Below, in pieces: positions 29,866 to 47,446 of a DNA stretch of 64,000 nucleotides; the first letter of the stretch is position 1, and each line of letters begins with the position of its first letter. The notes beneath the pieces are model-generated. The model was not told the origin of the DNA, searched no databases, and saw only the letters and a list, made by a program, of their open reading frames with translations. Where the stretch lies: positions 151,917 through 215,916 of the forward strand of contig NZ_JAHBZK010000007.1 in assembly GCF_019635465.1 (NCBI RefSeq), written 5' to 3'. Source of the DNA: Hydrogenophaga sp. Its GTDB lineage: Bacteria > Pseudomonadota > Gammaproteobacteria > Burkholderiales > Burkholderiaceae_C. The position numbers were made by a program, and so were the translations under genes.

Positions 29866-31206
29866 GTGCAACCAGACCATTCACCTGCCCAGATGCCTGC
29901 CCAAGATTGCGACGTCTTCGTGATCGGGGGCGGCCCCGCCGGCTCGACCGTATCGGCACTGCTGGCCAGCCAGGGCCACCGCGTGGTGCTGGTCGACAAG
30001 GACCACCATCCGCGTTTTCACATCGGTGAATCCCTGCTGCCGGCCAACCTGCCCTTGCTCGACCGCATGGGCGTGGGCGAGGCGGTGCGTGCCATCGGCA
30101 TGCCCAAGCCCGGCGCCGAGTTCGTTTCCCCGCAGCACAGCCACACGCAGACCTACTACTTCGCCGACGCCTGGGACAAGACCATGCCCGGCGCCTACCA
30201 GGTCCGCCGGGCCGATTTCGACCACATCCTGCTCAACAACGCGCGCACCCGCGGTGTCGAGGTGTTTGAAGGCACGCGCGCGGTCGACGTGCAGTGGGAT
30301 GCGCCCGGCCGCAAGGTCGCTTCGGTCACCACGCGCGACGACAACGGGGCCAGCGCCACCTGGCGCCCCCGCTTCCTGATCGATGCCTCGGGGCGCGACA
30401 CCTTTCTGGCGGGCCGCCTCAAGATCAAGACCAAGAACCCGGACCACAACAGCGCGGCGGTCTATGCGCACTTTCAGAACGCGCAGCGCCTACCGGGTCA
30501 GGACGCCGGCAACATCTCGGTCTTCTGGTTCGAGCACGGCTGGTTCTGGTTCATTCCGCTGCACGACGGCGCCACCAGCGTGGGCATGGTGACCTGGCCG
30601 TACCACATGAAATCGCGTGGCGAACGCAGCCTCAGCGACTTCCTGCTCGACAACATCCGCCAGTGCCCGGCGCTGGCGCAACGCCTCGCACAAGCCACGC
30701 TGTGCACCGAGGCCGAAGCGGCGGGCAATTACTCGTACAGCGCCACGCAGTGTCACGGCGACAACTTCCTGCTGCTGGGCGACGCCTATGCCTTCATCGA
30801 CCCGGTGTTCTCGTCGGGCGTGTGGCTGGCCATGAGCGGCGGTGAGGTCGGCGCCGAGGTGGTGCACGCCTGCCTCAGCTCGCCCGAGCGCGCCAAAACC
30901 GAACTGGCCCGCTTCGATCGCCACATGCGCCTGGGTCCGCGCGCCTTCTCCTGGTTCATCTACCGCATGACCAACCCAACCATGCGCGGCTTCTTCATGC
31001 AGCCCCACAACCCCTTGCGCATGAAGGAGGCCTTGCTTTCGGTGCTGGCGGGCGACCTGTTCGGGCGCACACCGATCTGGCCATCGCTGTGGGCATTCAA
31101 GGCGCTGTACTTCTCGGTCAACCTGGTGCACCCCCGGCGCGCGTGGCGGGCCTGGCGTCAGCGGCGCGGCAACGTGCAGGCCGCACCTGCACAGACCGGC
31201 GCATGA
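29866..31206 (+). CDS. FAD-dependent halogenase-like oxidoreductase of the aryl-polyene cluster
   Basis: A 446-residue flavoprotein of the flavin-dependent halogenase family. The FAD site VFVIGGGPAGSTVS (residues 18-30) is followed by FHIGESLLPANLPLLDRMG, then GMPKPGAEF with Lys81 at the place of the catalytic lysine, and the halogenase hallmark WxWxIP (WFWFIP, residues 226-231). Both hallmarks being intact makes real halogenation possible. Xanthomonadins, the related pigments of Xanthomonas, are brominated. GTG start with a GAGG site 5 nt upstream. First gene of the plus-strand unit; its stop overlaps the chorismatase start by 4 nt. An alternative role is a geranylgeranyl-reductase-like oxidoreductase. 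Confidence 0.8.
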   Translation: MQPDHSPAQMPAQDCDVFVIGGGPAGSTVSALLASQGHRVVLVDKDHHPRFHIGESLLPANLPLLDRMGVGEAVRAIGMPKPGAEFVSPQHSHTQTYYFADAWDKTMPGAYQVRRADFDHILLNNARTRGVEVFEGTRAVDVQWDAPGRKVASVTTRDDNGASATWRPRFLIDASGRDTFLAGRLKIKTKNPDHNSAAVYAHFQNAQRLPGQDAGNISVFWFEHGWFWFIPLHDGATSVGMVTWPYHMKSRGERSLSDFLLDNIRQCPALAQRLAQATLCTEAEAAGNYSYSATQCHGDNFLLLGDAYAFIDPVFSSGVWLAMSGGEVGAEVVHACLSSPERAKTELARFDRHMRLGPRAFSWFIYRMTNPTMRGFFMQPHNPLRMKEALLSVLAGDLFGRTPIWPSLWAFKALYFSVNLVHPRRAWRAWRQRRGNVQAAPAQTGA

Positions 31207-32189
31207 ACCGCCTGCAGCGCCTGCACCCCTGCCCCACCCGGCCATCGTCCATTGAGCAGGTCCTGGGCGGATCGGCGATCGCCGACGCCCAAGGCGCCCC
31301 CGACTGGCCCGAACAAACACTGCACATGACCGGCTTCGATGCGCCCTGGCGCGAGGCCTGGGGCGTGGCCGGCGACATCGACGCCGGGCAGCACGGGGAC
31401 GTGCTGTGGCGCGCCAACCAAGAGGTGATGTTCGCGCTGGTTGAGCTGGAAGAGCCCTCCGGATCAACGGCCAAAGGTGCGGGTGAGGCCCTGCGGGCAC
31501 TCACCGAGCGGGCCTATGGCCAGCTGTTCGACCTGATGGCCACACAGGGCACGCCGCACCTGTGGCGGGTCTGGAACTACCTGCCCGACATCAACGCAGA
31601 GGCCGACGGCCTGGAGCGCTACCGCTGGTTCAATCTCGGGCGCCACCAGGCCTACGACGCGCGTGGCACAGCGGTGGCGCAGCATGCGCCCGCGGCCAGT
31701 GCGCTGGGGTCGGCCGGCGGCCCCTTGTCGATCGCCTGCCTGGCGGGGCGTCATCCGCCTCGCGCCATCGAAAACCCGCGTCAGGTCAGTGCCTACCACT
31801 ACCCCGACCAATACGGCCCGAGACCACCGGTGTTTGCCCGCGCCGTGCTGGCGGGCGATATGGGCCAGCCGACCCTGTTCGTTTCGGGCACGGCCAGCAT
31901 CGTGGGCCACGAGACGGTGCACGCAGGGGACGTGCTGGCCCAATGCGCAGAGACCGCGCGCAACCTGAACGCCGTGTTCGCCGAAGCCAGCCACGCCGGT
32001 GGCGGCCACCACTACCTCGCCCATCAAGCAGAGCACCGCGTCTACGTTCGCCACAGCAACGACGTCGCGGCCGTGCGCGCGTTCCTGACAGATGCCCTGC
32101 AAGGCGCGCCGCTGGCGCTGGTGCAGGCCGACGTGTGCCGCCAGGACCTGCTCGTGGAAGTCGAATCGGTGGCCAACCCGGCACGCTGA
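31203..32189 (+). CDS. Chorismatase, FkbO/Hyg5 family (XanB2-like), starter-unit supply
   Basis: A 328-residue chorismatase. These enzymes cleave chorismate to pyruvate plus either a dihydroxycyclohexadiene acid or 3-/4-hydroxybenzoate; the Xanthomonas member XanB2 makes the hydroxybenzoate that primes xanthomonadin and ubiquinone. The family segment SGTASIVGHETVHAGD (about residues 229-244), the N-terminal VEQVLGG-like start and the WRVWNYLPDINAE motif are present. Start at ATG 31203 overlaps the halogenase stop (ATGA). The exact product isomer cannot be decided by eye. Confidence 0.87.
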   Translation: MNRLQRLHPCPTRPSSIEQVLGGSAIADAQGAPDWPEQTLHMTGFDAPWREAWGVAGDIDAGQHGDVLWRANQEVMFALVELEEPSGSTAKGAGEALRALTERAYGQLFDLMATQGTPHLWRVWNYLPDINAEADGLERYRWFNLGRHQAYDARGTAVAQHAPAASALGSAGGPLSIACLAGRHPPRAIENPRQVSAYHYPDQYGPRPPVFARAVLAGDMGQPTLFVSGTASIVGHETVHAGDVLAQCAETARNLNAVFAEASHAGGGHHYLAHQAEHRVYVRHSNDVAAVRAFLTDALQGAPLALVQADVCRQDLLVEVESVANPAR

Positions 32190-32192
32190 CCC

Positions 32193-33014
32193 ATGCGCAC
32201 CGAAGCAACCGTCCCCCGCATGCCCTGGTGGCAAGCCACACGCGAGACCGTGGCCATGGTGGTGGGGCTGGGCACGCTGGCGCTGCTGTGCCTGAGCTGG
32301 TTCCCCGCGGCCGCCGTGCTGCACCTGCTGCTGCCCCGGCGCACCGGCCAGTGGCTGGGCCGGCGCGTCGCCTGCCACGGCTTCCGCTTTTACCTGCGGG
32401 TGCTTGAGCTGGCCTGCGGCTGCCGCTTCGACCTGGCGGCTCTTGACGGCTTGGGCCGAGAGGGCGCCATGATCGTCGCCGCCAACCACCCCAGCCTGCT
32501 TGACGCGGTGCTGCTGGTTTCCCGTCTACCCAACGCCGTCTGCATCATGAAAGCGGCCTTGCTTGACAACCCCATGTTCGGCGCGGGCGCCCGGCTGGCG
32601 CGCTACATCCGCAACGACAACCTGGTCAACCTGATCTCGCGCAGCCGCGCTGCGCTGCGCGAAGGCACGCAGATCATCGTGTTCCCCGAAGGCAGCCGCA
32701 CCGAACAATTCCCTATCGATCGTGTCCTGCCCTCGATTGGCCTGGTGGCCCAGCGCGCGCAGGTGCCCGTTCAGGTGGTGCTGCTCGATTTCTCGTCGCC
32801 CTACCTCGGCAAGGGCTGGCCCATCTGGCGCCGCCCCTCGCTGCCGCTGGTGGTCACCGCGCGGCTGGGCCAGCGCTTTGACGCGCCGCAGGATGTGCCG
32901 ACCTTCACCGACGCATTGCAGCGCCACTTTGACGACGCGCTGAGCCCCGAGTCCGCCGATGCCGCCACCGATACGGCCCGACCATGCACGCCTCCACGAC
33001 CCATCTCGTCCTGA
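32193..33014 (+). CDS. PlsC-type (lysophospholipid) acyltransferase of the polyene cluster
   Basis: A 273-residue 1-acylglycerol-3-phosphate acyltransferase-fold protein. One membrane helix at residues 15-45 is followed by the acyltransferase motif H-x4-D (His99, Asp104 in NHPSLLD), and by FPEGSRTE (about residue 165). In polyene clusters such enzymes are thought to attach the polyene acyl chain to a lipid or glycerol head. It begins 3 nt after the chorismatase and overlaps the glycosyltransferase gene by 31 nt. Confidence 0.85.
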   Translation: MRTEATVPRMPWWQATRETVAMVVGLGTLALLCLSWFPAAAVLHLLLPRRTGQWLGRRVACHGFRFYLRVLELACGCRFDLAALDGLGREGAMIVAANHPSLLDAVLLVSRLPNAVCIMKAALLDNPMFGAGARLARYIRNDNLVNLISRSRAALREGTQIIVFPEGSRTEQFPIDRVLPSIGLVAQRAQVPVQVVLLDFSSPYLGKGWPIWRRPSLPLVVTARLGQRFDAPQDVPTFTDALQRHFDDALSPESADAATDTARPCTPPRPISS

Positions 33015-33739
33015 TTCCAAGCTACAACCCGGGCGATCTGTTGCTCGGCACCGTGCGGGCAGCGCGTGCCCAATGGGCGCCGGTGTGGGTGGTGGTGGAC
33101 GGCAGCACCGATGCTTCCACCGCGCAGGTGCAGGCACTGGCCGCGCAGGACGACGGGCTTCGGGTCATCGTGCTGCCCGTCAATCAGGGCAAGGGCGCGG
33201 CGGTGCTGGCCGGCATCAAGGCCGCAGCGGCCGCGGGCTTCACACACGCCCTCACCATGGACGCCGACGGTCAGCACCCCGCCGAACTCATCCCCAACTT
33301 CATGGCCACATCCACCGCCGACCCCGCGGCCATGGTGCTGGGCAAGCCGGTCTTTGGCGCCGACGCCCCCGCGCTGCGCGTGCAAGGCCGGCGGGTGTCC
33401 AACGCCTGGGCCAACCTCGAAACTCTCGGCATGGGCGTGGGCGATTCGCTGTACGGCTTTCGGGTCTACCCGATCGCTGCGCTGCGCCGCGTGATGGCGT
33501 CCACGCGCTTCATGCGCCGCTTCGACTTCGACCCCGAGGCGGTGGTGCGCCTGTGCTGGGCCGGTGTTCGACCCATCAATGTGGACGCACCGGTGCGCTA
33601 CCTGGGCGCCGACGAAGGCGGCGTGTCGCACTTCAAATACCTGCGCGACAACACCCTGCTCACCTGGATGCACACGCGCCTGTTCATCGGCTTCGTGCTG
33701 CGCCTGCCCATGCTGCTGTGGCGCAAGTGGCGCGGCTGA
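32984..33739 (+). CDS. Family 2 glycosyltransferase of the polyene cluster
   Basis: A 251-residue GT2 enzyme (GT-A fold). It starts near VLIPSYNPGDLLLGTV and has the metal-binding D-x-D (Asp93-Ala-Asp95 in MDADGQHP) and a C-terminal amphipathic region ending in a basic, hydrophobic stretch likely to touch the membrane. Related glycosyltransferases occur in aryl-polyene clusters, where they may add a sugar to the lipid head group (inference). The stop lies 12 nt from the stop of the convergent minus-strand unit, with no terminator visible between them. Confidence 0.87.
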   Translation: MHASTTHLVLIPSYNPGDLLLGTVRAARAQWAPVWVVVDGSTDASTAQVQALAAQDDGLRVIVLPVNQGKGAAVLAGIKAAAAAGFTHALTMDADGQHPAELIPNFMATSTADPAAMVLGKPVFGADAPALRVQGRRVSNAWANLETLGMGVGDSLYGFRVYPIAALRRVMASTRFMRRFDFDPEAVVRLCWAGVRPINVDAPVRYLGADEGGVSHFKYLRDNTLLTWMHTRLFIGFVLRLPMLLWRKWRG

Positions 33740-33750
33740 GGCCTTTGGTC

Positions 33751-34470
33751 TCAGCCCATGCCGCCGTTGATGCCGATCACCTGCCCGCTGATGTAGCCGG
33801 CCTCTTCCCCGACCAGAAACGACACCAGCGCCGCCACCTCGTCGGCCCGACCGGCGCGCTGCATCGGCACCATCTGGCGAATGGTCGCGGCATCAAACGC
33901 ACCGTCGGCCATGCCGGTATCGACGATGCCCGGTGCCACCGCGTTGACCGTGATGCCGCGCGAGGCCACTTCCAGCGAGAGTGAACGCCCCGCCGCGTGC
34001 AGGGCCGCCTTGGCCGCGGCGTAGTTGGTCTGGCCGCGGTTGCCCAGCACCGCCGACACCGAGGTGATGTTGACGATGCGGCCCCAGCGGGTACGGATCA
34101 TCGGCAGCAACAACGGCTGGGTGACGTTGAAGAAGCCATTGAGCGAGACATCGACCACCCGGTCCCATTGCTCGCCCCGCATGCCGGCCAGCACTGCGTC
34201 GTCGTGCACGCCCGCGTTGTTGACCAGCACCTGGATCGGTGCCTCGTCGATCAGCGCGGCCAGCGCAGTGGCCGTGGCTTCGCGGTCGCACACATCGAAC
34301 TGCACGGCGCGCGCGGAACCACCCGCCTCACGCAGTTGCTGCGCCAGGGCTTCGGCCCGTGCCAGCCCTTGGTTGGCGTGCACCAGCACTTCCAGCCCAT
34401 CGCGCGCGAGGCGCTGCGCGATGGCCGAGCCCAGGCCGCCACTGGCGCCAGTGACGAGCGCGCGTTTCAT
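33751..34470 (-). CDS. 3-oxoacyl-ACP reductase (FabG-like) of the polyene cluster
   Basis: A 239-residue short-chain dehydrogenase/reductase. The NADPH site is ALVTGASGGLGSAIAQRLA; catalytic serine in NITSVSAVLG and the Tyr-x3-Lys pair in YAAAKAALHAAG. In aryl-polyene synthesis it reduces the 3-oxo group after each condensation. Last gene of the 16-gene minus-strand unit; overlaps the preceding dehydratase by 4 nt. Confidence 0.93.
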   Translation of the reverse strand: MKRALVTGASGGLGSAIAQRLARDGLEVLVHANQGLARAEALAQQLREAGGSARAVQFDVCDREATATALAALIDEAPIQVLVNNAGVHDDAVLAGMRGEQWDRVVDVSLNGFFNVTQPLLLPMIRTRWGRIVNITSVSAVLGNRGQTNYAAAKAALHAAGRSLSLEVASRGITVNAVAPGIVDTGMADGAFDAATIRQMVPMQRAGRADEVAALVSFLVGEEAGYISGQVIGINGGMG

Positions 34471-34940
34471 GCGTCACCTCCACTCGCGCCCGCGTTCGCA
34501 CCCACATCGAGCACCACGGCAGCGCGGCCCTCGGCCAGGCAACCGCGCGCCGAGGCGACACGAAAGCCGTACATCACGTTCGCCCCCACCGCCGACAGGC
34601 GCTGTGCGGTGATCTGCAAGGGCGAGTCCTCGGCCAGCAGTTCGCTGTGGTGCAACTGCACCGCGCGCACGCTGGCGAGGTAGCCGGCGGCGGGTGCGGG
34701 GCTGTCGCCGGCGGTGAGTGCGCCATGCACCGCCATGGCCTGCGCGGCGTACTCGATGGCGTGCGCGCTCGACAACACCCCGTCGCGTCGCAAGGGGTGC
34801 TCGGTGCCAGGGGCGATGTGCGCACTGCAGGTGATGGCGTCGTCGGACCACTGCTGCACCGCATCGAGCAGGCACATGCTGCCCTGGTGCGGAATGCGCT
34901 GCGCGATCCACGCGCGGTCAAGGGGGGTGTCTGGGCTCAT
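34467..34940 (-). CDS. Hotdog-fold 3-hydroxyacyl-ACP dehydratase (ApeP-like)
   Basis: A 157-residue hotdog protein with IPHQGSMCLLDAV near the N terminus, the signature of the APE-cluster dehydratase subunit, and SSAHAIEYAAQAMAVHGAL in the central helix. In E. coli-type clusters the corresponding protein works with a second hotdog dehydratase; the 120-residue protein at 42949-43311 may be that partner. Dehydration after each reduction gives the conjugated double bonds. Confidence 0.85.
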   Translation of the reverse strand: MSPDTPLDRAWIAQRIPHQGSMCLLDAVQQWSDDAITCSAHIAPGTEHPLRRDGVLSSAHAIEYAAQAMAVHGALTAGDSPAPAAGYLASVRAVQLHHSELLAEDSPLQITAQRLSAVGANVMYGFRVASARGCLAEGRAAVVLDVGANAGASGGDA

Positions 34941-34979
34941 GGGCGTTCGGCGAAGGCTCTGCGAAGGCGATGCGAAGGT

Positions 34980-35771
34980 TCAGCGCGGCGTGAAGCGCAG
35001 CTCGAGGTGCAAGGGCGCCAGGTGGTCGATGACCGCGCGCGTTGTCTGCCCCTTTGCAATGGCCTGCAACAGCGGTAAGGCCCGCAACGATGGGAAGGCC
35101 TGGCGCAGGCCATCGAGTCCGCCATCTGCCATGGTGGTGGGTGGCTCGCGCGTGGGTGTGCCCTGCAACTGGCCCAGGCTGGTTTCGCGGGCCTGGGTGC
35201 CCAGCCACAGCGCCACACCGGCCACGTCGGGCACCGGGCGGCAGGTGTGCAAAGGCTCGGGGTATTCGCTGTCGTAGACCACCAGCAGAATCTGATCGAG
35301 CCCATCGGCCAGCTGGCCGACGGCGTCGAGCCAGCCGGCGCCGAAGCTGGCGTCGTAGGCGCACAGCACCTGGCTGGGCGCCATGGAACGCGAGGCGATG
35401 CCCCAGTAGCCGGCCGCGGCGTTGTGGACCGAGTTGTGAAAACGCGTGGGCGAGACGGCGCGGTCGCTGCCCGCGAGTTGCTCGCACAGCGCGTGGCAGT
35501 TGTGCCCGTCGGCACCGGAGGAGCTGAACACCGTGGCCACCGGCGCGGGGTCCTGCTCACCCAGTGCCTGCCAGCCCAGGGCCAGCGCAACGCGCACCAC
35601 CCGACTGGCGCGTCGGCGCTCGGCCGCGGGCAAACGCTCGGCCACCGGCAACACCGTGGGCGCCGAAGTCCAGGCCTGCTCGCCGCGCAAGGTGCGCGCG
35701 GTCTGGCCCCAGTCCGGCAGACCCGGTGCAATCAAGGACACGCCATGCAACCACACCGACGGCGCACTCAT
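34980..35771 (-). CDS. Ketosynthase-like chain-length-factor-type protein
   Basis: A 263-residue protein matching the N-terminal half of beta-ketoacyl synthases (PF13723-type). It carries the thiolase-fold core segments FSSSGADGHNCHALCEQLA, FHNSVHNAAAGYWGIA and LCAYDASFGAGWLDA, but at the position of the active cysteine it has serine/alanine residues. It is probably a non-catalytic partner of the ketosynthase encoded upstream (overlap 4 nt), like chain length factors in type II polyketide and aryl-polyene systems. I start at ATG 35771 because this overlaps the ketosynthase stop. Confidence 0.82.
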   Translation of the reverse strand: MSAPSVWLHGVSLIAPGLPDWGQTARTLRGEQAWTSAPTVLPVAERLPAAERRRASRVVRVALALGWQALGEQDPAPVATVFSSSGADGHNCHALCEQLAGSDRAVSPTRFHNSVHNAAAGYWGIASRSMAPSQVLCAYDASFGAGWLDAVGQLADGLDQILLVVYDSEYPEPLHTCRPVPDVAGVALWLGTQARETSLGQLQGTPTREPPTTMADGGLDGLRQAFPSLRALPLLQAIAKGQTTRAVIDHLAPLHLELRFTPR

Positions 35772-36958: not shown

Positions 36959-36993
36959 CGGGTCGGATCGAAGCAGGATGATGGCGGGCGTTG

Positions 36994-39160: not shown

Positions 39161-41487
39161 GCCGCCCGCTCCCGCGGCGCGAGCGCCGCCGCAAACACCA
39201 GGGCCAGCAAGGCGCCGGGCGCCACGGTGGCCCCCACCGCCTGCAGCACCGGCACCGCCGACATGGCCAGCGCGCCAAAGCCGATCACCGTGGTGCCGCA
39301 GGCCACCAGCACCGACAGCAGCGAGGTGGCGTCCGCCGCCGGGTCGCTGCACCAGCGCTCCAGAAACAGGGCGTAGTTGGAGCCCACCGCCACGATGAGC
39401 AGCATGCCCACCAAGTGCAGCAGGTGCAGGCGCGCACCGCCCAGATGAAGGCCGGCCATCACCACCGCCACCGTCGCCACCAGCGGCAGCAGCACGGCCG
39501 CCAGCCGCCTCGCGGAGCGCAAGGTGAGCGAGAGCAGCGCCACGATGGCCACCATGCCCAGCAAGGACAACACGATGGCCTGGCGCAGGTAGTCGGCGTA
39601 CATGTGCTCGAACTCGGCCTTGAGGTCGACAAACAAGGCGCCGCTGCCTTGCAGGGCGCGCTCCAGCTCGTGCGCCGGCAGATCGGAGCCGCCCTGCCCG
39701 GCCACCGGCCGCAGGGGCAGCAGGGCCGTCCACCCCGAGGGGTGCGACTGCAACAGCGAGTCGACCGCCAGGGCCAGCGCGGTGCCGTCCAGATCGGCGC
39801 GGCGCAGCGGTGGCGCCGTGCGCGCCTGGGCCACCTCCGCGACGAAAGGCGCAAGGCGCGCGGGTGAGATGGGCTGACCGGCCAGGGCGTCGTCGAGTCG
39901 GCCCTTCAGCACCTGCGACTCGGGCAGGCTGGCCTGGCGCTGCGACTGCAAGGCCTCGCTCGGCAGAAAGCGGGCGGGCGAATCGAAGCCGCCGATGCGT
40001 CCCTGCTCAACCAGGGGCGCGAGGCGCTCGCCGGCCAGCTCGGCGCCTTGCAGAGCCAGCTCGCGGCTGGCCGCACGCACCACCACGATGTAGCGCGCAT
40101 CGGGTGCGCCCAGGTCACTGCGCAATTGCGTGTCGCGCTGCGCATCGGCTTCGGTGATGCTGGAGAGCACCGACAAATTGGGCTCCCACAGGGCCTGCCG
40201 GTGCATGGCGAGATAGGTCAGCGCGATCGCACCCAGCAGCAGCACCGGCCAGCGCAGCGCACGCGCGCGGCGCACCAGACCGACAAAACCTGGGGGCAGA
40301 CCGGGCGTACGCACCTGCACCTGACCCGCCATCGCGGGCAGCACGAAGCGCGTCACCAGCGAGGCCGTGACCACGCCGCTCAAGGCATACAGGCCCAGTT
40401 GCGCCAGCCCCGGAAAACCGGCAAACAGCAGTGCACCGAAGCCCAGCACCGAGGTGGCCACGCCCAGGCGGATCGTGGGCCAGAAGCGGCTGTGCCATTC
40501 GCGCAGATCCCCGCGGCCGGCCTGCACGAAGTAATAGATGCCGTAGTCGACCGCCTCACCAATGAGCGCCGCACCGAAACCGGCGGTGATGGCGAACACC
40601 GACCCGTGCACCAGCGAGACCACCACCAAGCCGGCCAGCGCGCCGCTGAGCACCGGCACCAGCGTGAGCAGCAGCGGCCAGGGGCGGCGGTAGACCAGCC
40701 ACAGCAGCAGACTGATGCCGGCCGCACTCATGAGCGTGAGGCGCGCCACGTCGGCCTTCACCGCAGCGCGCGTCTGCACCGCAAACACCCCCGGGCCGGC
40801 CACCTGCAGGCTCAGCGCGGGCGTGGCCTGAGATTCCTCGGCGAACAGCTGCTGCACCCGCTCAACGGCCTGCGCCTGGCCGTCGGTGTCGGCGCCCAGC
40901 GCACGGGTCTGCAACAGCAGCAGCGCGCGCTGGCCATCGCGCGAAGACCACACGCCCTCGGCCATGGCCGGCTGACCCTGGGATTGCAGGCCGCTCAGCA
41001 ACTCGATGACTTCGCCCGTGGGATCGCGCAGAAAGTGCGGCTTGAGCAGCAGACCGGCCGGCGAAGACACGATGTCGATGGTGTTGAGCACCGCCGAGCG
41101 CAGGCCGTCGACGCTGAAGCGATCGGCAGTCACTGCCGGGCTCAACTGGTAACGGTGGCGCATCAGCACCGACAGCTCGCCATCGAGCGCGCCCAGCTCG
41201 CCGTTCTGTACCGACACAAACGCCGGGTCGGCGGCGAGCCGGTCGCGCAGGGCGTGCGAAGCCTGCGCACGGCTTCGCGCGTCGCCGCCTTCAATCGCCA
41301 CCATCAGCAACCGCGACACCACGCCTTCGCGCAGCTGATCGACCAACACCTCCTGCTCGGGCGTGGGCTCGGACGGCAGAAAGAACGACAGATCGGTGGT
41401 GAAGCGACTGTGCGACACCCACCAGACCGCCAGCAGCATGGCTGCCAGCCAGGTCGCCGCCAGCACCAACCGCGCACGCACCTTCAT
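39157..41487 (-). CDS. MMPL/RND-type exporter of the polyene cluster
   Basis: A 776-residue membrane transporter of the MMPL family with about twelve helices in two halves and two periplasmic loops, the same family as the xanthomonadin exporter. The RND-like regions ITAGFGAALIGEAVDYGIYYFVQ (first half) and LLIVAVGSNYALFLERW (second half) are clear. It probably moves the aryl-polyene lipid across the inner membrane with LolA as periplasmic carrier. I start at ATG 41487 because an open upstream stretch lies inside the lolA-like gene; this also gives a 4-nt overlap. Confidence 0.9.
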   Translation of the reverse strand: MKVRARLVLAATWLAAMLLAVWWVSHSRFTTDLSFFLPSEPTPEQEVLVDQLREGVVSRLLMVAIEGGDARSRAQASHALRDRLAADPAFVSVQNGELGALDGELSVLMRHRYQLSPAVTADRFSVDGLRSAVLNTIDIVSSPAGLLLKPHFLRDPTGEVIELLSGLQSQGQPAMAEGVWSSRDGQRALLLLQTRALGADTDGQAQAVERVQQLFAEESQATPALSLQVAGPGVFAVQTRAAVKADVARLTLMSAAGISLLLWLVYRRPWPLLLTLVPVLSGALAGLVVVSLVHGSVFAITAGFGAALIGEAVDYGIYYFVQAGRGDLREWHSRFWPTIRLGVATSVLGFGALLFAGFPGLAQLGLYALSGVVTASLVTRFVLPAMAGQVQVRTPGLPPGFVGLVRRARALRWPVLLLGAIALTYLAMHRQALWEPNLSVLSSITEADAQRDTQLRSDLGAPDARYIVVVRAASRELALQGAELAGERLAPLVEQGRIGGFDSPARFLPSEALQSQRQASLPESQVLKGRLDDALAGQPISPARLAPFVAEVAQARTAPPLRRADLDGTALALAVDSLLQSHPSGWTALLPLRPVAGQGGSDLPAHELERALQGSGALFVDLKAEFEHMYADYLRQAIVLSLLGMVAIVALLSLTLRSARRLAAVLLPLVATVAVVMAGLHLGGARLHLLHLVGMLLIVAVGSNYALFLERWCSDPAADATSLLSVLVACGTTVIGFGALAMSAVPVLQAVGATVAPGALLALVFAAALAPRERAA

Positions 41488-42053
41488 CGGGTCACCATCG
41501 GCTCGAGTTGCAGCTCGGTACGATCGCCGTCGGCCTGGGCGTATTCGATGTGGCGCACATTGATGTCGTCGCCGTTGAGCGTGATGCGGGTGACGATGGC
41601 CCGCATGGCGGGCTCGATGGGCTCCAGCACCAGCGTCCATCGGCGCAGGCTGCCCTGCAGTTGAAGTTTGTAGTGGCGCTCCAGCCCGGCGCGATCGCCG
41701 CGCAAGGTGCTGCGGATGCTGGCCACGAAGGCCTGCACTTCGGGGCGCTGCGCGATCTGCACGCTCATACGGGTGCGCTCGCGCTCGATGGTGATGGTGT
41801 CCTTGTAGAGCAGCACCCGCTCAGCACGGGGGCGCAGGGTGCGACGCTCCAGCCAGTCCGGCGGGTTGTAGATCATCTCGCCGGTCGATCGCAGCGGGGC
41901 ATCGAGCATGGCCAGGTGACGCAGTTCGACAAAGCGCACTGTCCCGCCCGCGTTGGTCGCCAGGCGGGCCATGAGTTGATCGAGCAGGTCCTGCGCCTGC
42001 GCCAGCGGCGCCATCAGCAGCAAGACCAAAGACAGCAGCAGACGAAACCTCAT
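41484..42053 (-). CDS. LolA-like periplasmic lipid carrier of the polyene cluster
   Basis: A 189-residue secreted protein with a signal peptide ending AQA-Q around residue 20 and a LolA fold (TVRFVELRHLAMLDAPLRSTGEMIYNPPDWLERRT). LolA-like proteins occur in aryl-polyene clusters, where they are thought to take the lipid-linked product to the outer membrane, in parallel to lipoprotein transport by LolA. Overlaps neighbours by 4 nt on both sides. Confidence 0.86.
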   Translation of the reverse strand: MRFRLLLSLVLLLMAPLAQAQDLLDQLMARLATNAGGTVRFVELRHLAMLDAPLRSTGEMIYNPPDWLERRTLRPRAERVLLYKDTITIERERTRMSVQIAQRPEVQAFVASIRSTLRGDRAGLERHYKLQLQGSLRRWTLVLEPIEPAMRAIVTRITLNGDDINVRHIEYAQADGDRTELQLEPMVTR

Positions 42054-42952
42054 GCGCGCCAGAAGTCGAAAAAGTTGAACCAGTTCATCGGCGCCTGCCG
42101 GCAGCAGGCCTGCAATGCTTGCACATAGGCCTGCCGGATACCGTCGATGGCCTTGTCGCGTTCGAGGCGAGGCACCGCCGCAAAGTTGCCCAGGGGCCGA
42201 AACACCAGGCGGTAGCGGTTGCCCCCCATGTACAGCCCGGCCATGAAGAACACCGGGCGTTTGAACACCGCCGCCAGCCGCCAGGGTGCCGTCGGAAACG
42301 GCGCGGGCGCCCCCAGAAAGTCGTGCGTGGCGCGCGCGTCGTTGTGCAGCGAGCGATCGGCCAGCAGACCGAGCAGGTGCCCCTGCTCAAGCCGGGCGGC
42401 GGCCTCGATCATCGAGTCGGGTCGGCCCAGTGGCACCACCTCCTGCTGCAGGGCCGGGTTGATGACCTGCAGCGCGGCGTTGACCTTGCGCGCGTTGTCC
42501 TCGTACATGAGCATGGACACCGAAATGCCCGGGTGGCGCCGGCCCACACAGCGCAAGGCCTCGAAGCTACCCAGGTGCGCCCCCATGAGCAGCACGCCAC
42601 GCCCGTCGGCCATCGCGTCCAGCAAGGCCTCGCTGCCTTCGATTTCGATGTCGAACAGGTCGAAGCGGTCCTTGAGCAGGTAGACGCGATCGTGCACCGT
42701 GGTGGCAAATGCGAGCAGGTGCCGGTACAGGTCGCGCCAGCGCACAGGCCCGCCCAAGACGCGCGACAGGTACTCGCGGCTGGCGCGCCGGGCAGACGCA
42801 CCGAAGAGCAGAAAGTACAGCGTGATGCCGTGCAGCACGCAGCGGCTGAGCCGGCGACCCAGGATCAGCGAGATCAGCACCATCAGGCGCATGACCAGCT
42901 GGTGGCCGCGTTCGGGTTGCGCGCGCCAGGCGGGCGCCTTGGGGGCCGTCAT
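42050..42952 (-). CDS. LpxL/HtrB-like acyltransferase of the polyene cluster
   Basis: A 300-residue lysophospholipid acyltransferase of the LpxL/LpxM fold. One N-terminal helix is followed by the catalytic H-x4-E motif in MGAHLGSFEALR and by LGLLADRSLHND. Within polyene clusters this type is thought to transfer the polyene chain to an acceptor in the inner leaflet of the inner membrane. It overlaps the dehydratase gene and the lolA-like gene by 4 nt. Confidence 0.88.
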   Translation of the reverse strand: MTAPKAPAWRAQPERGHQLVMRLMVLISLILGRRLSRCVLHGITLYFLLFGASARRASREYLSRVLGGPVRWRDLYRHLLAFATTVHDRVYLLKDRFDLFDIEIEGSEALLDAMADGRGVLLMGAHLGSFEALRCVGRRHPGISVSMLMYEDNARKVNAALQVINPALQQEVVPLGRPDSMIEAAARLEQGHLLGLLADRSLHNDARATHDFLGAPAPFPTAPWRLAAVFKRPVFFMAGLYMGGNRYRLVFRPLGNFAAVPRLERDKAIDGIRQAYVQALQACCRQAPMNWFNFFDFWRA

Positions 42953-43311
42953 GCCGCGCCGGCCCGCAACTGGCCGCTGGCCACCTGTTCGCCGTCGCGC
43001 CGGAATTCGAAGTTCAGCGTGCCGGTGGCGGTGGGTGTGAGCCGCAGCAGCAGTCGGTCGCCGGGTCTGACCACCTGCAGGAACTTGGCCTGCGGAACGA
43101 GCCAGACCCCATCGGCCGCCGAAGTCTGGAAGCTGCGCGCGGCCTCAAGCGCGAGGTCAAGCAGCACGACACCGGGCAGCACCGGGTGCCCGGGAAAGTG
43201 CCCCGCGAAGGCCGGGTGGTCCAGCGGCACCTGCCACGCACGCTCAAGCGGCTCCGGCACCTGGGGCAACGCCGATGGGGTCACCGGGGCCGAGGACTCA
43301 GGCGGACTCAC
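42949..43311 (-). CDS. Hotdog 3-hydroxyacyl-ACP dehydratase (FabZ/ApeI-like)
   Basis: A 120-residue hotdog protein with the FabZ/FabA-like motif FAGHFPGHPVLPGVVLLDLA, where histidine and the downstream acidic residue form the active site. I start at GTG 43311: the sequence GAGGTGCTCG gives a ribosome site 6 nt before it, and the gene then overlaps the ligase end by 14 nt. A GTG at 43284 is an alternative. It probably pairs with the ApeP-like dehydratase at 34467-34940. Confidence 0.85.
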   Translation of the reverse strand: MSPPESSAPVTPSALPQVPEPLERAWQVPLDHPAFAGHFPGHPVLPGVVLLDLALEAARSFQTSAADGVWLVPQAKFLQVVRPGDRLLLRLTPTATGTLNFEFRRDGEQVASGQLRAGAA

Positions 43312-44707
43312 CGAGCACCTCGCGGCGGTAGAGGGTCTGCAACGCATCGCGCGTGAGCTTGCCCGTGGCATTGCGCGGCAAGGCCGGCAGCAGCACCAGC
43401 GGACGCGGCAGAAAGATGGCGTCCACGCGTGCACGCAAGGCCTGCAGCAGCGCCTGGCTGCCAAGGCCCGGCGCCACCGCAAATGCGACGAGGCGGGTGA
43501 GCCCCGCGGCCTGCTCGCTGGCAGCGGCCTCGTCGGGCAGAAAGAAGGCCGCGTCGGTCACGCCCTCGATGCCGGCCAATTGCTGGTTGAGGTAAGCGAG
43601 AGAGGTGCGCTTGCCGGCCAGATTGATCAGGTCCGCATGGCGCCCGTGCAGCAGAAAGCGTCCGTCGGGCAAGGTCTCGATGAAATCGGCCAGCGGCACG
43701 CGCCCTTCGACGTGCCCGCCTTCGGCGTGCGTCACATCGCCATCGGCCTGCAGCGTCACGTCGCGCATCGGCGTCCAGGCCGCGCCCAGCACGGTGCGCC
43801 GGCTGGCCAGCGCCGACGACTCGGTGGAGCCATAGATTTCGTGCACCTCAGCACCGGTGGCCGCCTCCAGCTGGCGGGCCAGGCCCTCGGCCAGCGGCGC
43901 GGTGGCCGACAGCACACGCTCCACACGCCCCCCGCTCACACCCGCGGCCAGCCAGTTGGCCAGGTGAAACGGGGTGCTGACCAGCATGCGCGGTGCAGGC
44001 ACCCTGGCCAGCGCGTCATCGATGTCGCTGGGGTAGAACGGCTTGCCGCTCCAGAACGCGCAGCCACCGTGCAAGGCCAGCAGAAAGGTGGATTCGAAGC
44101 CGTAGCTGTGTTGCACCGGCACCGTGCCGACCAGGACATGGGGTTGCCGGTCCAGCCCCAGCGCTGCTGCCTCGGCACGCCCGTTGCGCACCAGCCGACC
44201 CCAGTGCTTGCGGTGCGGCTGCGGCCGCCCGGTCGAGCCGGAGGTGAACAGGATCGCCGCCAGCCGGGTGTGTTCGATGGCGGGAATGTCGTACACCGCG
44301 TCGGGTCGACCCTCACCGGGACCGACCGCCAGCCGCGGCAAGCCGCCCGTGTCGACATCGTCGCGCTCCACCAGACACACCGCGCCCGGGTGATCCTCAG
44401 CCACTTGCAGCAGGCTGTGCGCCAGCTGGGACGAAGGTTGCAGGCTCACACGCTGGCGCAGCAGACCGGCCGCAAAACCCACGGCAAAGCGGTAGCGGTC
44501 TTCACACAGGTTGATCAGATCGCCTTGCGGCGGCAGCCGCCCGGCCAACGCCTGGGCGTCGGCGATGTACTGGCGCACGGTCACGGCGGCACCGGGCGTC
44601 CAGGCCAGCACGTCGTCCAGCCCCAGACCGGTGACCAGCGGCGTCGATACGTCCATGGGATCAGCAGGCAATGGGACGACGCCCTGTGCGCGTGCAGCGG
44701 CCGTCAT
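43298..44707 (-). CDS. AMP-dependent acyl/aryl ligase of the polyene cluster (XanA2-like)
   Basis: A 469-residue adenylate-forming enzyme. The phosphate-binding A3 motif is LFTSGSTGRPQPHRKH, followed by EIYGSTESSALASR and a C-terminal LPRNATGKLTRDALQTL with the catalytic lysine. In xanthomonadin synthesis the corresponding ligase activates 4-hydroxybenzoate and loads it on an ACP. It is the likely acceptor for the product of the chorismatase at 31203-32189. It is shorter than typical acyl-CoA synthetases but complete for both domains. Confidence 0.9.
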   Translation of the reverse strand: MTAAARAQGVVPLPADPMDVSTPLVTGLGLDDVLAWTPGAAVTVRQYIADAQALAGRLPPQGDLINLCEDRYRFAVGFAAGLLRQRVSLQPSSQLAHSLLQVAEDHPGAVCLVERDDVDTGGLPRLAVGPGEGRPDAVYDIPAIEHTRLAAILFTSGSTGRPQPHRKHWGRLVRNGRAEAAALGLDRQPHVLVGTVPVQHSYGFESTFLLALHGGCAFWSGKPFYPSDIDDALARVPAPRMLVSTPFHLANWLAAGVSGGRVERVLSATAPLAEGLARQLEAATGAEVHEIYGSTESSALASRRTVLGAAWTPMRDVTLQADGDVTHAEGGHVEGRVPLADFIETLPDGRFLLHGRHADLINLAGKRTSLAYLNQQLAGIEGVTDAAFFLPDEAAASEQAAGLTRLVAFAVAPGLGSQALLQALRARVDAIFLPRPLVLLPALPRNATGKLTRDALQTLYRREVLGESA

Positions 44708-45366
44708 GTCGGCTCCCGCGTGGCGCGCCGCCGGGCGAGGTCTTGGCGGTAGGACTGCACCACCATCTTCAGCGTCGGCCGCTCATGAGGTGGCAACACC
44801 ACACGGCGCCACAGTGCGTCGAGCACGAACATGAGGCCCACCAGAGGGCCCGTCAGCATGTTGCCGTACACCGACCAGACCTCGCGCGGCGCCCACAGGA
44901 AGAGCCCGGTGGACACCGCCGCGTTGATCACGAAATACAGCGTCCAGGCCAGCGTGGCCTGGCGGGTGTAGCGCAGCTTCGCCGGCGAAAGGTACTGCCC
45001 CATTGAATGGCGGGCGAAGCGCGTGATCAACGGGTCGCCGTCACCCCGCAAGGAGGCTCCAAACCAGGCCGCCAGCGCGAGGTGAACGCCCAGGTGCGGC
45101 AGGTAGTGCAGCAACGCGATCTGGGTGCGCAGCACCGGCCACAGCGCCCACAACAGAGCCAGGCAGAGCAGCCACAGCACCACCCGCCAGACCGGTGCAC
45201 AAGTGCGCGCAATCACGATGCCGAAGGCCAGCAACACGGGGGCGATGGCCACGGCTGCGTTCAGGTCGGCAGGCCCTTTGCCGATCGACCCCAGGTGCGA
45301 CGCCAACATCCAGGCCAGCAGCAACAGGCCGACCAGGGCGGTTCGCAGCCAGCCAAGGGCATTCAT
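44704..45366 (-). CDS. COG4648-type membrane protein of the polyene cluster
   Basis: A 220-residue integral membrane protein with about six helices and a charged C-terminal tail. No catalytic motif is visible. Its position between ACP and ligase, and segments such as GQYLSPAKLRYTRQATLAWTLYFVINA, match the conserved membrane protein found at this place in aryl-polyene clusters. Function not known. It overlaps both neighbours by 4 nt. Confidence 0.78.
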   Translation of the reverse strand: MNALGWLRTALVGLLLLAWMLASHLGSIGKGPADLNAAVAIAPVLLAFGIVIARTCAPVWRVVLWLLCLALLWALWPVLRTQIALLHYLPHLGVHLALAAWFGASLRGDGDPLITRFARHSMGQYLSPAKLRYTRQATLAWTLYFVINAAVSTGLFLWAPREVWSVYGNMLTGPLVGLMFVLDALWRRVVLPPHERPTLKMVVQSYRQDLARRRATREPT

Positions 45367-45650
45367 GTGGTGCGGTGTTGCACGACGTGCGCGGCCAGGG
45401 ACCGCGCGCTCGCGAATATCTTCAGGTTGTCGTCGTTGTCCGAGCGCATCTGAAAGCCGTAGCGCTTGGAAATGACGAGAGCGATCTCGAGCATGTCGAT
45501 CGAGTCCAGGCCCAGGCCTTCGCCGTACAGCGGCGCGTCCGGGTCGACCTCGGCGGCGCTCACCTCCAGGTTGAGGGCTTCGATGATCAGCGCGATGAGT
45601 TCGGGCAGCAGCTGTTCGACGGCGGTGGGATCGACGGTCTCGGACGACAT
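45363..45650 (-). CDS. Acyl carrier protein (second ACP of the polyene cluster)
   Basis: A 95-residue acyl carrier protein. The phosphopantetheine serine is Ser50 in LGLDSIDMLEIAL, the canonical DS(L/I)-x-(L/M)-x-E context. Acidic helices I and II flank it. With the smaller ACP at 46938-47177 it may give one ACP for the aryl starter and one for malonyl extension; which does which cannot be told from sequence. Confidence 0.9.
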   Translation of the reverse strand: MSSETVDPTAVEQLLPELIALIIEALNLEVSAAEVDPDAPLYGEGLGLDSIDMLEIALVISKRYGFQMRSDNDDNLKIFASARSLAAHVVQHRTT

Positions 45651-45675
45651 GGTTTCCTCGTGGGACGCTTGGGCG

Positions 45676-46935
45676 TCAGGCGGGAGTGGCGGCAAACGCC
45701 AGCACGGCGTTGCTGCCCCCGAAGGCAAATGAATTGGACAAGGCCACACGCAGCCCATTCACGCGCCGACCTTCGAGCACATGGTCGACGCCTTCGCAGG
45801 CGGGGTCCAGCCGACCGGACAGGTGGGCGGTGGGTGGTATGGCTTGCTCGCGCAGCGCCATCACGGTGGCGACGGCTTCGATGGCGCCGGCGGCACCCAG
45901 CAGGTGACCGTGCATGGATTTGGTGGAACTGACCGGTAAGCCGGGCGCGCGAGCGCCGAACACATCGACGATGGACTGCACCTCGATCGGGTCACCCTCG
46001 GGTGTGGCCGTGCCATGCGCGTTGATGTAGCCCACCGCATCGGCGGTGATGCCCGCGTCGTCGAGCACGCCGCGCATGGCGCGCGCCTGACCTGAACGAT
46101 CAGGCCGCACCAGGTGGCTGTGGTCGCAGTTGGTGGCGTAGCCGATCAACTCGGCGTGGATGCGCGCACCGCGCGCCACCGCGTGGTCCCAGTCTTCGAG
46201 TACCAGCGCTGCCCCACCCTCGCCCAGCACAAGGCCGGTGCGGTCGGCAGCGAACGGCCGGCAGGCCTGCGCAGAGGTGTGTTCATCGCCTTGCGCCATG
46301 ACCCGCATGGCCTCCCAGGCGCGCACCACGCTGACCGATTGGCAGACATCCGAGCCACCGGTGACCATGACCGTGGCCTCGCCAGAGCGCACGCGCCGGT
46401 AAGCCTCGCCGATGGCGATCGACGCCGAGGCACAAGCGGCTGTGTGGCTGCTGCTGACGCCGCCCAGGCCGAGCTGGATGGACGCGTGCGCGTTGACCGC
46501 GTTGCTCATGCCCATGACCACCGACAAGGGCGAGACACGCTCGCGGCCCTTGAGCCAGAGATCGCGGGCGCCGCGCTCATGCGCGGCCAGGCCGCCCAGT
46601 GCCGTGCCCCAGGAGCAGCCCCAGCCAGAACGGTCGCTGTCATCGTCCTTGGCAGAGCGCGGCAGGGCGGCGTCCTGCCAGGCATTGAAGACCGCCGTCA
46701 TGCCAAGGTGGGCAAAGCGCTCCATCATGGACGCGAGTGGTTTGCCGAGCACGCGGTCGGGCTCGAACCCCTGACACAGCACGAACGGCGTCTTCAGCGG
46801 ACGCGGCTCGTCTTGCGTGACCATCCAGCGCACGGCCGATTCACCAGCGCACAGGCGTTCAAAGAAATCGGAGAGATCGGCCCCGTAGGGGCTCACGAGG
46901 CCCAGACCCGTGATGGCGACCCGACGCCGCGTCAT
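45676..46935 (-). CDS. Beta-ketoacyl-ACP synthase, KAS II-like, of the polyene cluster
   Basis: A 419-residue ketosynthase of the FabF type. The triad is intact: Cys168 (TAACASASIAIGEA), His307 (INAHGTATPEGDPIE) and His344 (KSMHGHLLGAAG, with Lys339). It is the second complete ketosynthase in the unit and may perform either the first condensation with the aryl starter or general extension. It begins 2 nt after the small ACP stop. Confidence 0.92.
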   Translation of the reverse strand: MTRRRVAITGLGLVSPYGADLSDFFERLCAGESAVRWMVTQDEPRPLKTPFVLCQGFEPDRVLGKPLASMMERFAHLGMTAVFNAWQDAALPRSAKDDDSDRSGWGCSWGTALGGLAAHERGARDLWLKGRERVSPLSVVMGMSNAVNAHASIQLGLGGVSSSHTAACASASIAIGEAYRRVRSGEATVMVTGGSDVCQSVSVVRAWEAMRVMAQGDEHTSAQACRPFAADRTGLVLGEGGAALVLEDWDHAVARGARIHAELIGYATNCDHSHLVRPDRSGQARAMRGVLDDAGITADAVGYINAHGTATPEGDPIEVQSIVDVFGARAPGLPVSSTKSMHGHLLGAAGAIEAVATVMALREQAIPPTAHLSGRLDPACEGVDHVLEGRRVNGLRVALSNSFAFGGSNAVLAFAATPA

Positions 46936-46937
46936 CC

Positions 46938-47177
46938 TTACCCCGTCTTGGTCGACGACAGTGCCTCGATGATGGCCACCATGTCGGCCACGGTGCTCGG
47001 CGGCGTCTGGTCGGAGGCGATCTCGATGCCCAGGCGGTCTTCGGCCTCGAACATCAGCTCGGCCAGCATGAGCGAGTCCACGCCAAGGTCGGCCAGCACG
47101 GCGTCGGGCTTCACATCGGCCTCGGCCACACCAAGGCGATCAACCAGGAACTGGCGGATCAGTTCGAGCGCATTCAT
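46938..47177 (-). CDS. Acyl carrier protein (first ACP of the polyene cluster)
   Basis: A 79-residue ACP with phosphopantetheine serine 35 in LGVDSLMLAELMFE. It is the first gene of the minus-strand unit. I start at ATG 47177 because the sequence MNALELIRQFLVDRLGV is the usual helix I of such ACPs; an in-frame ATG at 47204 would add nine residues. Its small size and position match the APE-cluster ACPs. Confidence 0.88.
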   Translation of the reverse strand: MNALELIRQFLVDRLGVAEADVKPDAVLADLGVDSLMLAELMFEAEDRLGIEIASDQTPPSTVADMVAIIEALSSTKTG

Positions 47178-47332: not shown

Positions 47333-47446
47333 GCGACGCGCCCCTGTTTCATGCCCCCGCACCATGGGCCCGTCACAGGCCTGACCACAGGGCTCGGCTA
47401 CAGTACGCCGCGATCGTCTGACGTCCCTTTCGCGGCCCCACACCCG

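What the first reader, a model, noticed from the sequence alone, without database searches (positions are those of the whole stretch)
29866..47177. Twenty-gene aryl-polyene (xanthomonadin-like) cluster with its own chorismatase and halogenase-like enzyme
Seen: chorismatase, AMP-ligase, two ACPs, two full ketosynthases, a ketosynthase-like partner, two dehydratases, ketoreductase, methyltransferase, two acyltransferases, LolA-like carrier and MMPL exporter in two convergent units. Known: this combination marks aryl-polyene and xanthomonadin clusters, and XanB2-type chorismatase supplies the hydroxybenzoate starter. Inferred: the organism makes a yellow, possibly halogenated aryl-polyene lipid in its outer membrane. 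The layout with the chorismatase and halogenase as a plus-strand unit opposing a 16-gene minus-strand unit may be a distinct family variant.
Basis: partly seen in the sequence, partly recalled or inferred. Interest (0 to 1): 0.8.

Follow-up and report, generated by a model that had tools for sequence, protein, structure and literature searches.

The report
Yellow aryl-polyene pigment gene cluster, Hydrogenophaga
These neighbouring genes very probably let a Hydrogenophaga bacterium make a yellow membrane pigment of the same class as the pigments of Xanthomonas and Azoarcus; it is a good new example of a known kind of gene cluster rather than a new kind.

Summary
In detail: 20 tightly packed genes lie at 29866-47177, four plus-strand genes converging on sixteen minus-strand genes. 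The genome is a Hydrogenophaga. Eighteen genes correspond, by annotation and order, to arcA,B,D,E,H-K,M-V of Azoarcus BH72, loci needed there for the xanthomonadin-type pigment arcuflavin (PMC3949708); the other two are a FabF-like ketosynthase and an ACP. The main ketosynthase and its partner match APE-type structures rather than FabF. The layout is not private: four other Hydrogenophaga loci show all 20 genes in the same order. The halogenase keeps its motifs in 38 relatives, but Azoarcus has the gene and a halogen-free pigment, so halogenation is open.

The parts
29866..31206 (+). flavin-dependent halogenase (arcA-like)
   Evidence: Pfam PF04820 6.7e-32; best solved matches labelled halogenase, ChlB4, PltA, CmlS; GGGPAG 21, K81, WFWFIP 226, FIDPVFSSG 310
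31203..32189 (+). chorismatase (arcB/XanB2-like), likely 3-hydroxybenzoate starter supply
   Evidence: PF21168 4.1e-36; TIGR04444 243 bits, below its 325 cut-off; G229, C312, E319 align with G240, C327, E334 of 5ag3
32193..33014 (+). PlsC-type acyltransferase (arcD-like)
   Evidence: PF01553 6.1e-13; 32% to E. coli ApeD
32984..33739 (+). family-2 glycosyltransferase (arcE-like)
   Evidence: PF00535 4.9e-22; 41% to E. coli ApeJ
33751..34470 (-). beta-ketoacyl-ACP reductase (arcH-like)
   Evidence: NF004200 353.6 bits, cut-off 273; 43% to ApeQ
34467..34940 (-). hot-dog dehydratase (arcI/ApeP-like)
   Evidence: weak solved match 6qsr_B, E 0.00098; 38% over 58 aa to ApeP
34980..35771 (-). chain-length-factor-like ketosynthase partner (arcJ/ApeC-like)
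   Evidence: PF13723 1.6e-29; solved matches 7f28_A and 6qsp_B; KS active-site patterns not found
35768..36958 (-). elongating ketosynthase (arcK/ApeO-like)
   Evidence: best solved matches 7f28_B (263 bits) and 6qsp_A (251 bits), next 170 bits; tree; ACSSS, HGT and KGATGH residues
36994..37713 (-). SAM methyltransferase (arcM-like)
   Evidence: PF13489/PF13649 (scanned from 37671)
37710..38510 (-). polysaccharide deacetylase family protein (arcN-like)
   Evidence: PF01522 1.6e-29
38507..39160 (-). alpha/beta-hydrolase (arcO position)
   Evidence: PF00756 7.7e-06
39157..41487 (-). MMPL-family exporter (arcP-like)
   Evidence: PF03176 1.1e-08; 24% to ApeM
41484..42053 (-). LolA-like carrier (arcQ-like)
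   Evidence: PF19574 3.1e-25
42050..42952 (-). LpxL-type acyltransferase (arcR-like)
   Evidence: PF03279 1.9e-11; 29% to ApeJ, which the GT2 also matches
42949..43311 (-). FabZ/ApeI-like dehydratase (arcS-like)
   Evidence: PF07977; PF22818 below its cut-off; 36% to ApeI
43298..44707 (-). AMP-dependent starter-activating ligase (arcT-like)
   Evidence: PF00501 4.6e-16; 24% to ApeH
44704..45366 (-). membrane protein (arcU/ApeG-like)
   Evidence: no Pfam hit; 30% over 110 aa to ApeG
45363..45650 (-). acyl carrier protein 1 (arcV-like)
   Evidence: PF00550 5.5e-08; LDSI; 37% to ApeE
45676..46935 (-). second, FabF-like ketosynthase (no counterpart in the arc table)
   Evidence: TIGR03150 388.9 bits, below the 493.75 cut-off; FabF structures best; FabF/ApeR side of the tree
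46938..47177 (-). acyl carrier protein 2 (no counterpart in the arc table)
   Evidence: PF00550 1.5e-11; DSL
47351..48103 (+).
   Evidence: PF14378/PF01569; homologue within or beside the polyene cluster in 11 of 80 named loci and in 6 Hydrogenophaga loci

Best explanation
This is a chromosomal aryl-polyene pigment cluster of the xanthomonadin/arcuflavin type in a Hydrogenophaga. Proposed route (inferred from homology): the chorismatase turns chorismate into 3-hydroxybenzoate (and some 4-hydroxybenzoate); the AMP ligase activates it and loads it on an ACP; the ApeO/ApeC-like ketosynthase pair, the ketoreductase and the two dehydratases build a conjugated polyene by repeated malonyl extension; the methyltransferase methylates the ring hydroxyl and the flavin enzyme may halogenate the carrier-bound ring or chain; acyltransferases, glycosyltransferase, deacetylase and the PAP2 phosphatase put the polyene on a lipid or glycolipid head group; MMPL and LolA proteins move it to the outer membrane. 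Gene identity, order and class are shown here. The ligase and chorismatase reactions are shown in print for the Azoarcus homologues. Pigment production and halogenation in this organism are inferred. A dialkylresorcinol ester (arcuflavin itself) is not expected, because no DarB was found.
For: Gene content. Correspondence with arc genes, two of which (arcK, arcT) were shown by disruption to be needed for the pigment in Azoarcus BH72 (PMC3949708: passages, sections). KS/CLF pair matched to APE-type structures and the KS tree. 14 of 20 proteins have an E. coli CFT073 APE counterpart at E<=1e-5, ACP2 at 0.002. Order conserved in Hydrogenophaga. Chorismatase is in 21 of 22 genus genomes with the ligase and in 0 of 14 without it, although 9 of those 21 carry it away from the other cluster genes.
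Against: No pigment data for this organism. The chorismatase scores below the TIGR04444 cut-off (243 vs 325), and its A167 differs from the Gly typical of the Hyg5 subfamily. The second KS is FabF-like. The methyltransferase is missing from three Hydrogenophaga loci (L031, L208, L209). Arcuflavin lacks halogen although Azoarcus has arcA. No sigma-70-like promoter was found in the region. The genome is 88% complete, so absences (DarB, CrtI, UbiC) are provisional.
Confidence: 0.88

Rival explanations
1. The cluster makes an aryl polyene, but the flavin enzyme does not halogenate it: it is a hydroxylase-like or inactive relative, as the halogen-free arcuflavin suggests.
For: Arcuflavin formula C41H52O4 despite arcA; non-halogenating flavoproteins also score well (for example QhpG 169 bits; 3nix); in H. 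palleronii only a stretch matching the last 47 residues is left at this place (L210).
Against: Lys81, WxWxIP and FxDPxFSSG are kept in all 39 long alignments (38 relatives and the window gene; 5 of the 44 loci given were dropped for lack of an alignment over 330 residues); most of the nearest solved relatives are labelled halogenases; in Xanthomonas a halogenase gene goes with brominated pigments, in Lysobacter neither is found (PMC3691225, passages).
Confidence: 0.45
2. The chorismatase is mainly a ubiquinone-precursor enzyme (4-hydroxybenzoate) that happens to sit here.
For: No UbiC in this genome and UbiA present; UbiC (4 of 36) and chorismatase (21 of 36) never co-occur in the genus; bacteria are said to use UbiC or XanB2 (PMC8854274, passages); in 9 of 21 genomes the gene stands apart from the cluster.
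Against: It tracks the pigment ligase almost perfectly (21 of 22 vs 0 of 14). 11 of 36 genus genomes have neither UbiC nor chorismatase, yet all 11 have a UbiA match of at least 177 bits, so another 4-hydroxybenzoate source exists or was missed. One of the 11 (G002) has the ligase and a halogenase cut by contig ends, so its chorismatase may lie in an assembly gap.
Confidence: 0.3
3. A fatty-acid or unrelated type II polyketide cluster.
For: The second KS and the ketoreductase look like FabF and FabG.
Against: APE-type KS/CLF pair, chorismatase, ligase, LolA and MMPL together.
Confidence: 0.03

Closest known systems
arc (arcuflavin) loci of Azoarcus sp. BH72 (PMC3949708)
   Same: Halogenase, chorismatase, acyltransferase, glycosyltransferase, KR, DH, CLF-like, KS, methyltransferase, deacetylase, arcO, exporter, LolA, acyltransferase, DH, ligase, arcU, ACP, in the same order within each block (Table 1).
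   Different: Two unlinked loci in BH72, one here; none of the 20 genes here is annotated like arcC, F, G, L, W, X, and no DarB is in the genome; extra KS2/ACP2 and PAP2 here. Compared by the published annotation table only; strands were not given there and the BH72 proteins were not aligned.
Xanthomonadin cluster of Xanthomonas
   Same: XanB2, ligase, KS with CLF-like partner, halogenase gene (papers seen in passages).
   Different: Gene order was not compared here; no Xanthomonas sequence was fetched.
Aryl-polyene cluster of Escherichia coli CFT073
   Same: KS, CLF, KR, two DH, ligase, membrane protein, ACPs, acyltransferase, LolA, MMPL counterparts.
   Different: No E. coli match (E<=0.1) for our halogenase, chorismatase, methyltransferase or hydrolase; E. 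coli ApeJ matches both our separate GT2 and our LpxL-type acyltransferase; its thioesterase and DUF3261 genes are the best hit of none of our 20.
Lysobacter enzymogenes yellow-pigment cluster (PMC3691225)
   Same: KS with CLF-like partner, XanB2 homologue (ORF5), two DH, KR (passages).
   Different: No halogenase gene there (passages).

Membership tests
xanthomonadin/arcuflavin-type aryl-polyene cluster | ApeO-type ketosynthase beside a truncated CLF-like partner | tested here: met
xanthomonadin/arcuflavin-type aryl-polyene cluster | AMP ligase, ACP, KR and two hot-dog dehydratases | tested here: met
xanthomonadin/arcuflavin-type aryl-polyene cluster | LolA-like carrier, MMPL exporter and acyltransferases | tested here: met
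xanthomonadin/arcuflavin-type aryl-polyene cluster | XanB2-type chorismatase making 3-hydroxybenzoate | tested here: inconclusive
   fold family and residues G229, C312, E319 present, but model score below cut-off and product not testable
xanthomonadin/arcuflavin-type aryl-polyene cluster | yellow aryl-polyene product | not testable with these tools
   needs extraction, UV-visible spectrum and MS
arcuflavin (polyene-dialkylresorcinol ester) | DarB in the genome | tested here: not met
   best match 44.8 bits, at the genome's FabH; cut-off 550; genome 88% complete
flavin-dependent halogenase | GxGxxG, catalytic Lys, WxWxIP | tested here: met
   (meaning of the motifs recalled)
flavin-dependent halogenase | halogenating activity | not testable with these tools
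   needs enzyme assay or MS
Escherichia coli-type APE cluster | ApeJ fusion, thioesterase and DUF3261 gene | tested here: not met
   GT2 and acyltransferase are separate genes; thioesterase and DUF3261 are best hit of none of the 20 (Ape letter names recalled)
distinct layout variant | convergent arrangement unique to this locus | tested here: not met
   GT2/KR convergent junction within 2.5 kb in 28 of 80 named loci, Hydrogenophaga included; all 20 genes in this order in 4 of 18 same-genus stretches

The most novel reading that the evidence does not exclude
The yellow colour used to define the genus Hydrogenophaga is, in the species that carry this cluster and lack CrtI (14 of 36 genomes, H. 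palleronii among them), an aryl polyene (possibly halogenated) and not a carotenoid; and in these species one chorismatase supplies both the pigment starter and the ubiquinone ring, tying pigment to respiration.
Probability: 0.3. Interest if true: 0.5.

Novelty: new member of a known kind. Interest (0 to 1): 0.3.

Why it matters
It gives a gene-level, testable explanation for the yellow colour on which the genus Hydrogenophaga was defined, supplies a natural set of genomes with and without the halogenase, chorismatase, DarB and CrtI in which pigment chemistry can be compared, and adds a PAP2 phosphatase to the parts list of xanthomonadin-type clusters, which hints at a phosphorylated lipid intermediate. 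As a cluster class it is already known.

Tried and rejected
Dialkylresorcinol ester (arcuflavin proper): rejected for this genome because no DarB is found. Other chorismate lyases: PF01947 finds none in the genus, and a profile search with alignment A1 adds no chorismatase in the genus. A lyase hidden next to ubiA: the one neighbour scanned in each of two relatives lacking both enzymes was a ferritin-like protein (G010) and a LysR regulator (G001), and in the own genome a LysR regulator; two more stretches fetched for this (L206, L207) were not scanned. Link of stand-alone chorismatases to ubiquinone genes: of 8 neighbouring frames scanned in two loci, those with a Pfam hit were a cation-efflux protein, PhoH, an amylase-like protein and TctC. 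Co-exclusion of CrtI and the cluster: not seen (CrtI in 8 of 22 cluster-bearing and 9 of 14 cluster-lacking genus genomes). Papers: searches (aryl polyene + chorismatase; Hydrogenophaga + aryl polyene) gave none; one search listed a paper on Hydrogenophaga sp. SL48, whose antiSMASH table has an Arylpolyene region and which names Xanthomonadin I among clusters its regions resemble (passages). In the listing no title or abstract start was about the pigment's chemistry. No structure prediction or fold search was run.
Full report
OBSERVATION. ORF listing, start-site inspection and Pfam scans confirm 20 genes at 29866-47177: four on the plus strand (halogenase, chorismatase, acyltransferase, glycosyltransferase) and sixteen on the minus strand (KR, DH, CLF-like, KS, methyltransferase, deacetylase, alpha/beta-hydrolase, MMPL, LolA, acyltransferase, DH, ligase, membrane protein, ACP, KS2, ACP2). 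Of the 19 junctions 13 overlap, 11 of them by 4 bases, and 11 bases separate the two converging units. A terminator-like hairpin lies at 29735-29758, between the upstream phasin gene and the halogenase; 10 terminator-like sites were found in the region against 7.7 expected. No sigma-70-like promoter was found (0 against 0.9 expected).

ORGANISM. The chorismatase finds relatives in a genus whose contigs agree in length with named Hydrogenophaga records (732668 bases, strain IBVHS1; 125294 bases, H. palleronii NBRC 102513). PMC5632844 (passages) lists BCTJ01 as H. palleronii NBRC 102513 and describes the genus as yellow-pigmented. The window's assembly has 29 contigs and 88.25% completeness.

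CLASS. The ketosynthase at 35768-36958 has 7f28_B and 6qsp_A as best solved matches (263 and 251 bits; the next, FabF-type, has 170), and the partner at 34980-35771 matches the other chains of the same two entries; that these are APE KS/CLF complexes is recalled. In a tree of 29 rows the window KS groups with E. coli ApeO and other cluster KSs (100/100), apart from the genome's own FabF; the second KS falls with FabF and ApeR (the program flagged long branches, ApeO, ApeR and FabF among them). BLASTP against the E. coli CFT073 APE cluster gives counterparts at E<=1e-5 for 14 of 20 proteins and, at 0.002, for ACP2; the deacetylase has only a weak match (0.005), and halogenase, chorismatase, methyltransferase and hydrolase have none at E<=0.1. 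E. coli ApeJ matches both our separate glycosyltransferase (41%) and our LpxL-type acyltransferase (29%).

COMPARISON WITH THE ARC LOCI. Table 1 of PMC3949708 (section read) lists arcA halogenase, arcB chorismatase, arcD acyltransferase, arcE glycosyltransferase and arcH-K (KR, DH, KS N-terminal domain, KS) in one locus and arcM-V (methyltransferase, deacetylase, arcO, exporter, LolA, acyltransferase, DH, ligase, arcU, ACP) in another. The window carries these 18 in the same order in one locus, plus KS2 and ACP2. This comparison is by annotation; the BH72 proteins were not aligned. In BH72, disruption of arcK and arcT abolished the pigment, ArcB made 3-HBA, and ArcT adenylated 3-HBA (passages).

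LAYOUT. One search fetched stretches around 20 of the relatives' chorismatases, 18 of the same genus. In one search, 10 of these 18 show the halogenase-chorismatase-acyltransferase-glycosyltransferase arm (L026, L027, L028, L029, L031, L032, L033, L038, L040, L042; in L040 the halogenase match is only the remnant described below), and 8 show the chorismatase without it (L030, L034-L037, L039, L041, L045). Four (L026, L027, L028, L038) show all 20 genes in the window's order; the others are cut by the end of the stretch or differ: L031 lacks the methyltransferase, KS2 and ACP2, L032 is interrupted after the ketoreductase, and L042 is rearranged. Adding the window and two small contigs known from the named set by their lengths (L083 with halogenase, L085 without), 12 of 21 chorismatase-bearing genus genomes have the gene beside the halogenase or its remnant and 9 do not. 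Among 80 named loci (7 of them Hydrogenophaga), the GT2/KR convergent junction within 2.5 kb was seen in 28; many loci are too short to tell. Dechloromonas hankyongensis (L090) has the arm and the KR-DH-CLF-KS block; Azoarcus sp. Aa7 (L102) has them without the halogenase. So the layout is shared, not private.

A 21ST GENE. The PAP2-superfamily gene at 47351-48103 has homologues inside or beside polyene clusters in 11 of 80 named loci: between KS and deacetylase (L110, L113, L118, L122), beside the KS (L096), between GT2 and KS2 (Variovorax L114, L132, L143), between ACP and chorismatase (Vogesella L080, Pseudogulbenkiania L112), and between GT2 and KR (L094). In Hydrogenophaga it lies at the same end of the cluster in L026, L027, L031, L038, L208 and L209; the rearranged L042 does not show it, and the other stretches (such as L028, L033, L211, L029, L032, L040) do not reach that end or leave too little beyond it. 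As an internal control, the other flanking genes tested (HDAC-like, phasin, patatin, solute-binding protein) were found, if at all, only in Hydrogenophaga loci (L026, L027, L077). No PAP2 gene is in the BH72 table.

HALOGENASE. Most of the best solved matches are labelled halogenases. K81, aligned with K76 of 3e1t (CndH, recalled), WFWFIP and FIDPVFSSG are present, and the Lys and the fixed motif positions are kept in all 39 long alignments (38 relatives and the window gene; of 44 loci given, L102, L104, L124, L195 and L196 gave no alignment over 330 residues and were dropped). Within the genus a homologue at E<=1e-30 occurs in 21 of 22 ligase-bearing genomes and 1 of 14 others. In H. palleronii (G003) that homologue lies on another contig (48% identity); beside its chorismatase only a stretch matching the last 47 residues is found. 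Against the halogenation inference: arcuflavin is C41H52O4 (section read). Xanthomonas, with a halogenase gene, makes brominated pigments, and Lysobacter, without one, does not (PMC3691225, passages).

CHORISMATASE AND UBIQUINONE. By counting along the alignment, G229, C312 and E319 fall on G240, C327 and E334 of 5ag3 (Hyg5, recalled); [quoted passage not shown] With that offset the third position is A167 here, not Gly; it is Ala in 78 of 80 named loci, G229 is kept in 80 of 80 and C312 in 79 of 80, the last not aligned there. In 36 genus genomes (own included): chorismatase 21, UbiC (PF04345) 4, both 0, neither 11; the profile search and PF01947 did not change this. A UbiA match of at least 177 bits is found in 35 of 36 (own 297 bits), not all over the 275-bit cut-off. 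The exclusivity fits a shared role in ubiquinone, but the 11 genomes with neither weaken that step (one of them, G002, may have an assembly gap there), and relatedness of the genomes was not corrected for.

CAROTENOIDS. CrtI-family matches of 229 bits or more occur in 17 of 36 genus genomes; the best in this genome is 36 bits and in G003 (H. palleronii) 57 bits over 67 positions. The cluster ligase is in 22 of 36; 14 have the ligase without CrtI, 8 have both, 9 CrtI alone, 5 neither. That the genus pigment is recorded as carotenoid is recalled from the taxonomic literature and was seen in no call. Hydrogenophaga sp. SL48 was already reported by antiSMASH to carry an arylpolyene region, with Xanthomonadin I among the known clusters its regions resemble (PMC12993520, passages), so a cluster of this class in the genus is not new.

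VERDICT. A real, well-preserved xanthomonadin/arcuflavin-type aryl-polyene cluster; a new member of a known kind. The interest lies in the pigment identity of the genus, the halogenase question and the PAP2 gene.

Noticed in passing
G000 contig C11 6659-71169 (own genome, outside the window): Eight ketosynthase matches in very long open frames (about 1500-4200 codons), suggesting a large modular type I polyketide cluster in the same genome.
   Followed up: no
36 Hydrogenophaga genomes: Eleven have neither UbiC nor a chorismatase, while all eleven have a UbiA match of at least 177 bits: the source of 4-hydroxybenzoate for ubiquinone is unexplained there.
   Followed up: partly
G005 and G007 (L208, L209): DarB-like genes (464-468 bits, under the 550 cut-off) lie about 10 kb from the ligase, between the ketoreductase and the halogenase, so these two may make arcuflavin-like esters.
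   Followed up: partly
L210, L192 (H. palleronii, G003): Beside the chorismatase only a stretch matching the last 47 residues of the halogenase is left, while a 48% homologue sits on another contig.
   Followed up: partly
L197, L198, L199 (G011, G029, G028): A second halogenase homologue (47-49% identity) with the same motifs lies on another contig or far from the cluster.
   Followed up: no
L042 (G004): A rearranged cluster with the ACP2/KS2 pair next to the glycosyltransferase and only distant KS/CLF matches (50% and 33%) in the stretch fetched.
   Followed up: no
window 45676-47177: The extra KS2/ACP2 pair is FabF-like, is missing from one Hydrogenophaga locus (L031), and a related pair recurs near the glycosyltransferase in Variovorax; its task is unknown.
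   Followed up: partly
window 16233-21033: Mrp-type sodium/proton antiporter subunits.
   Followed up: no
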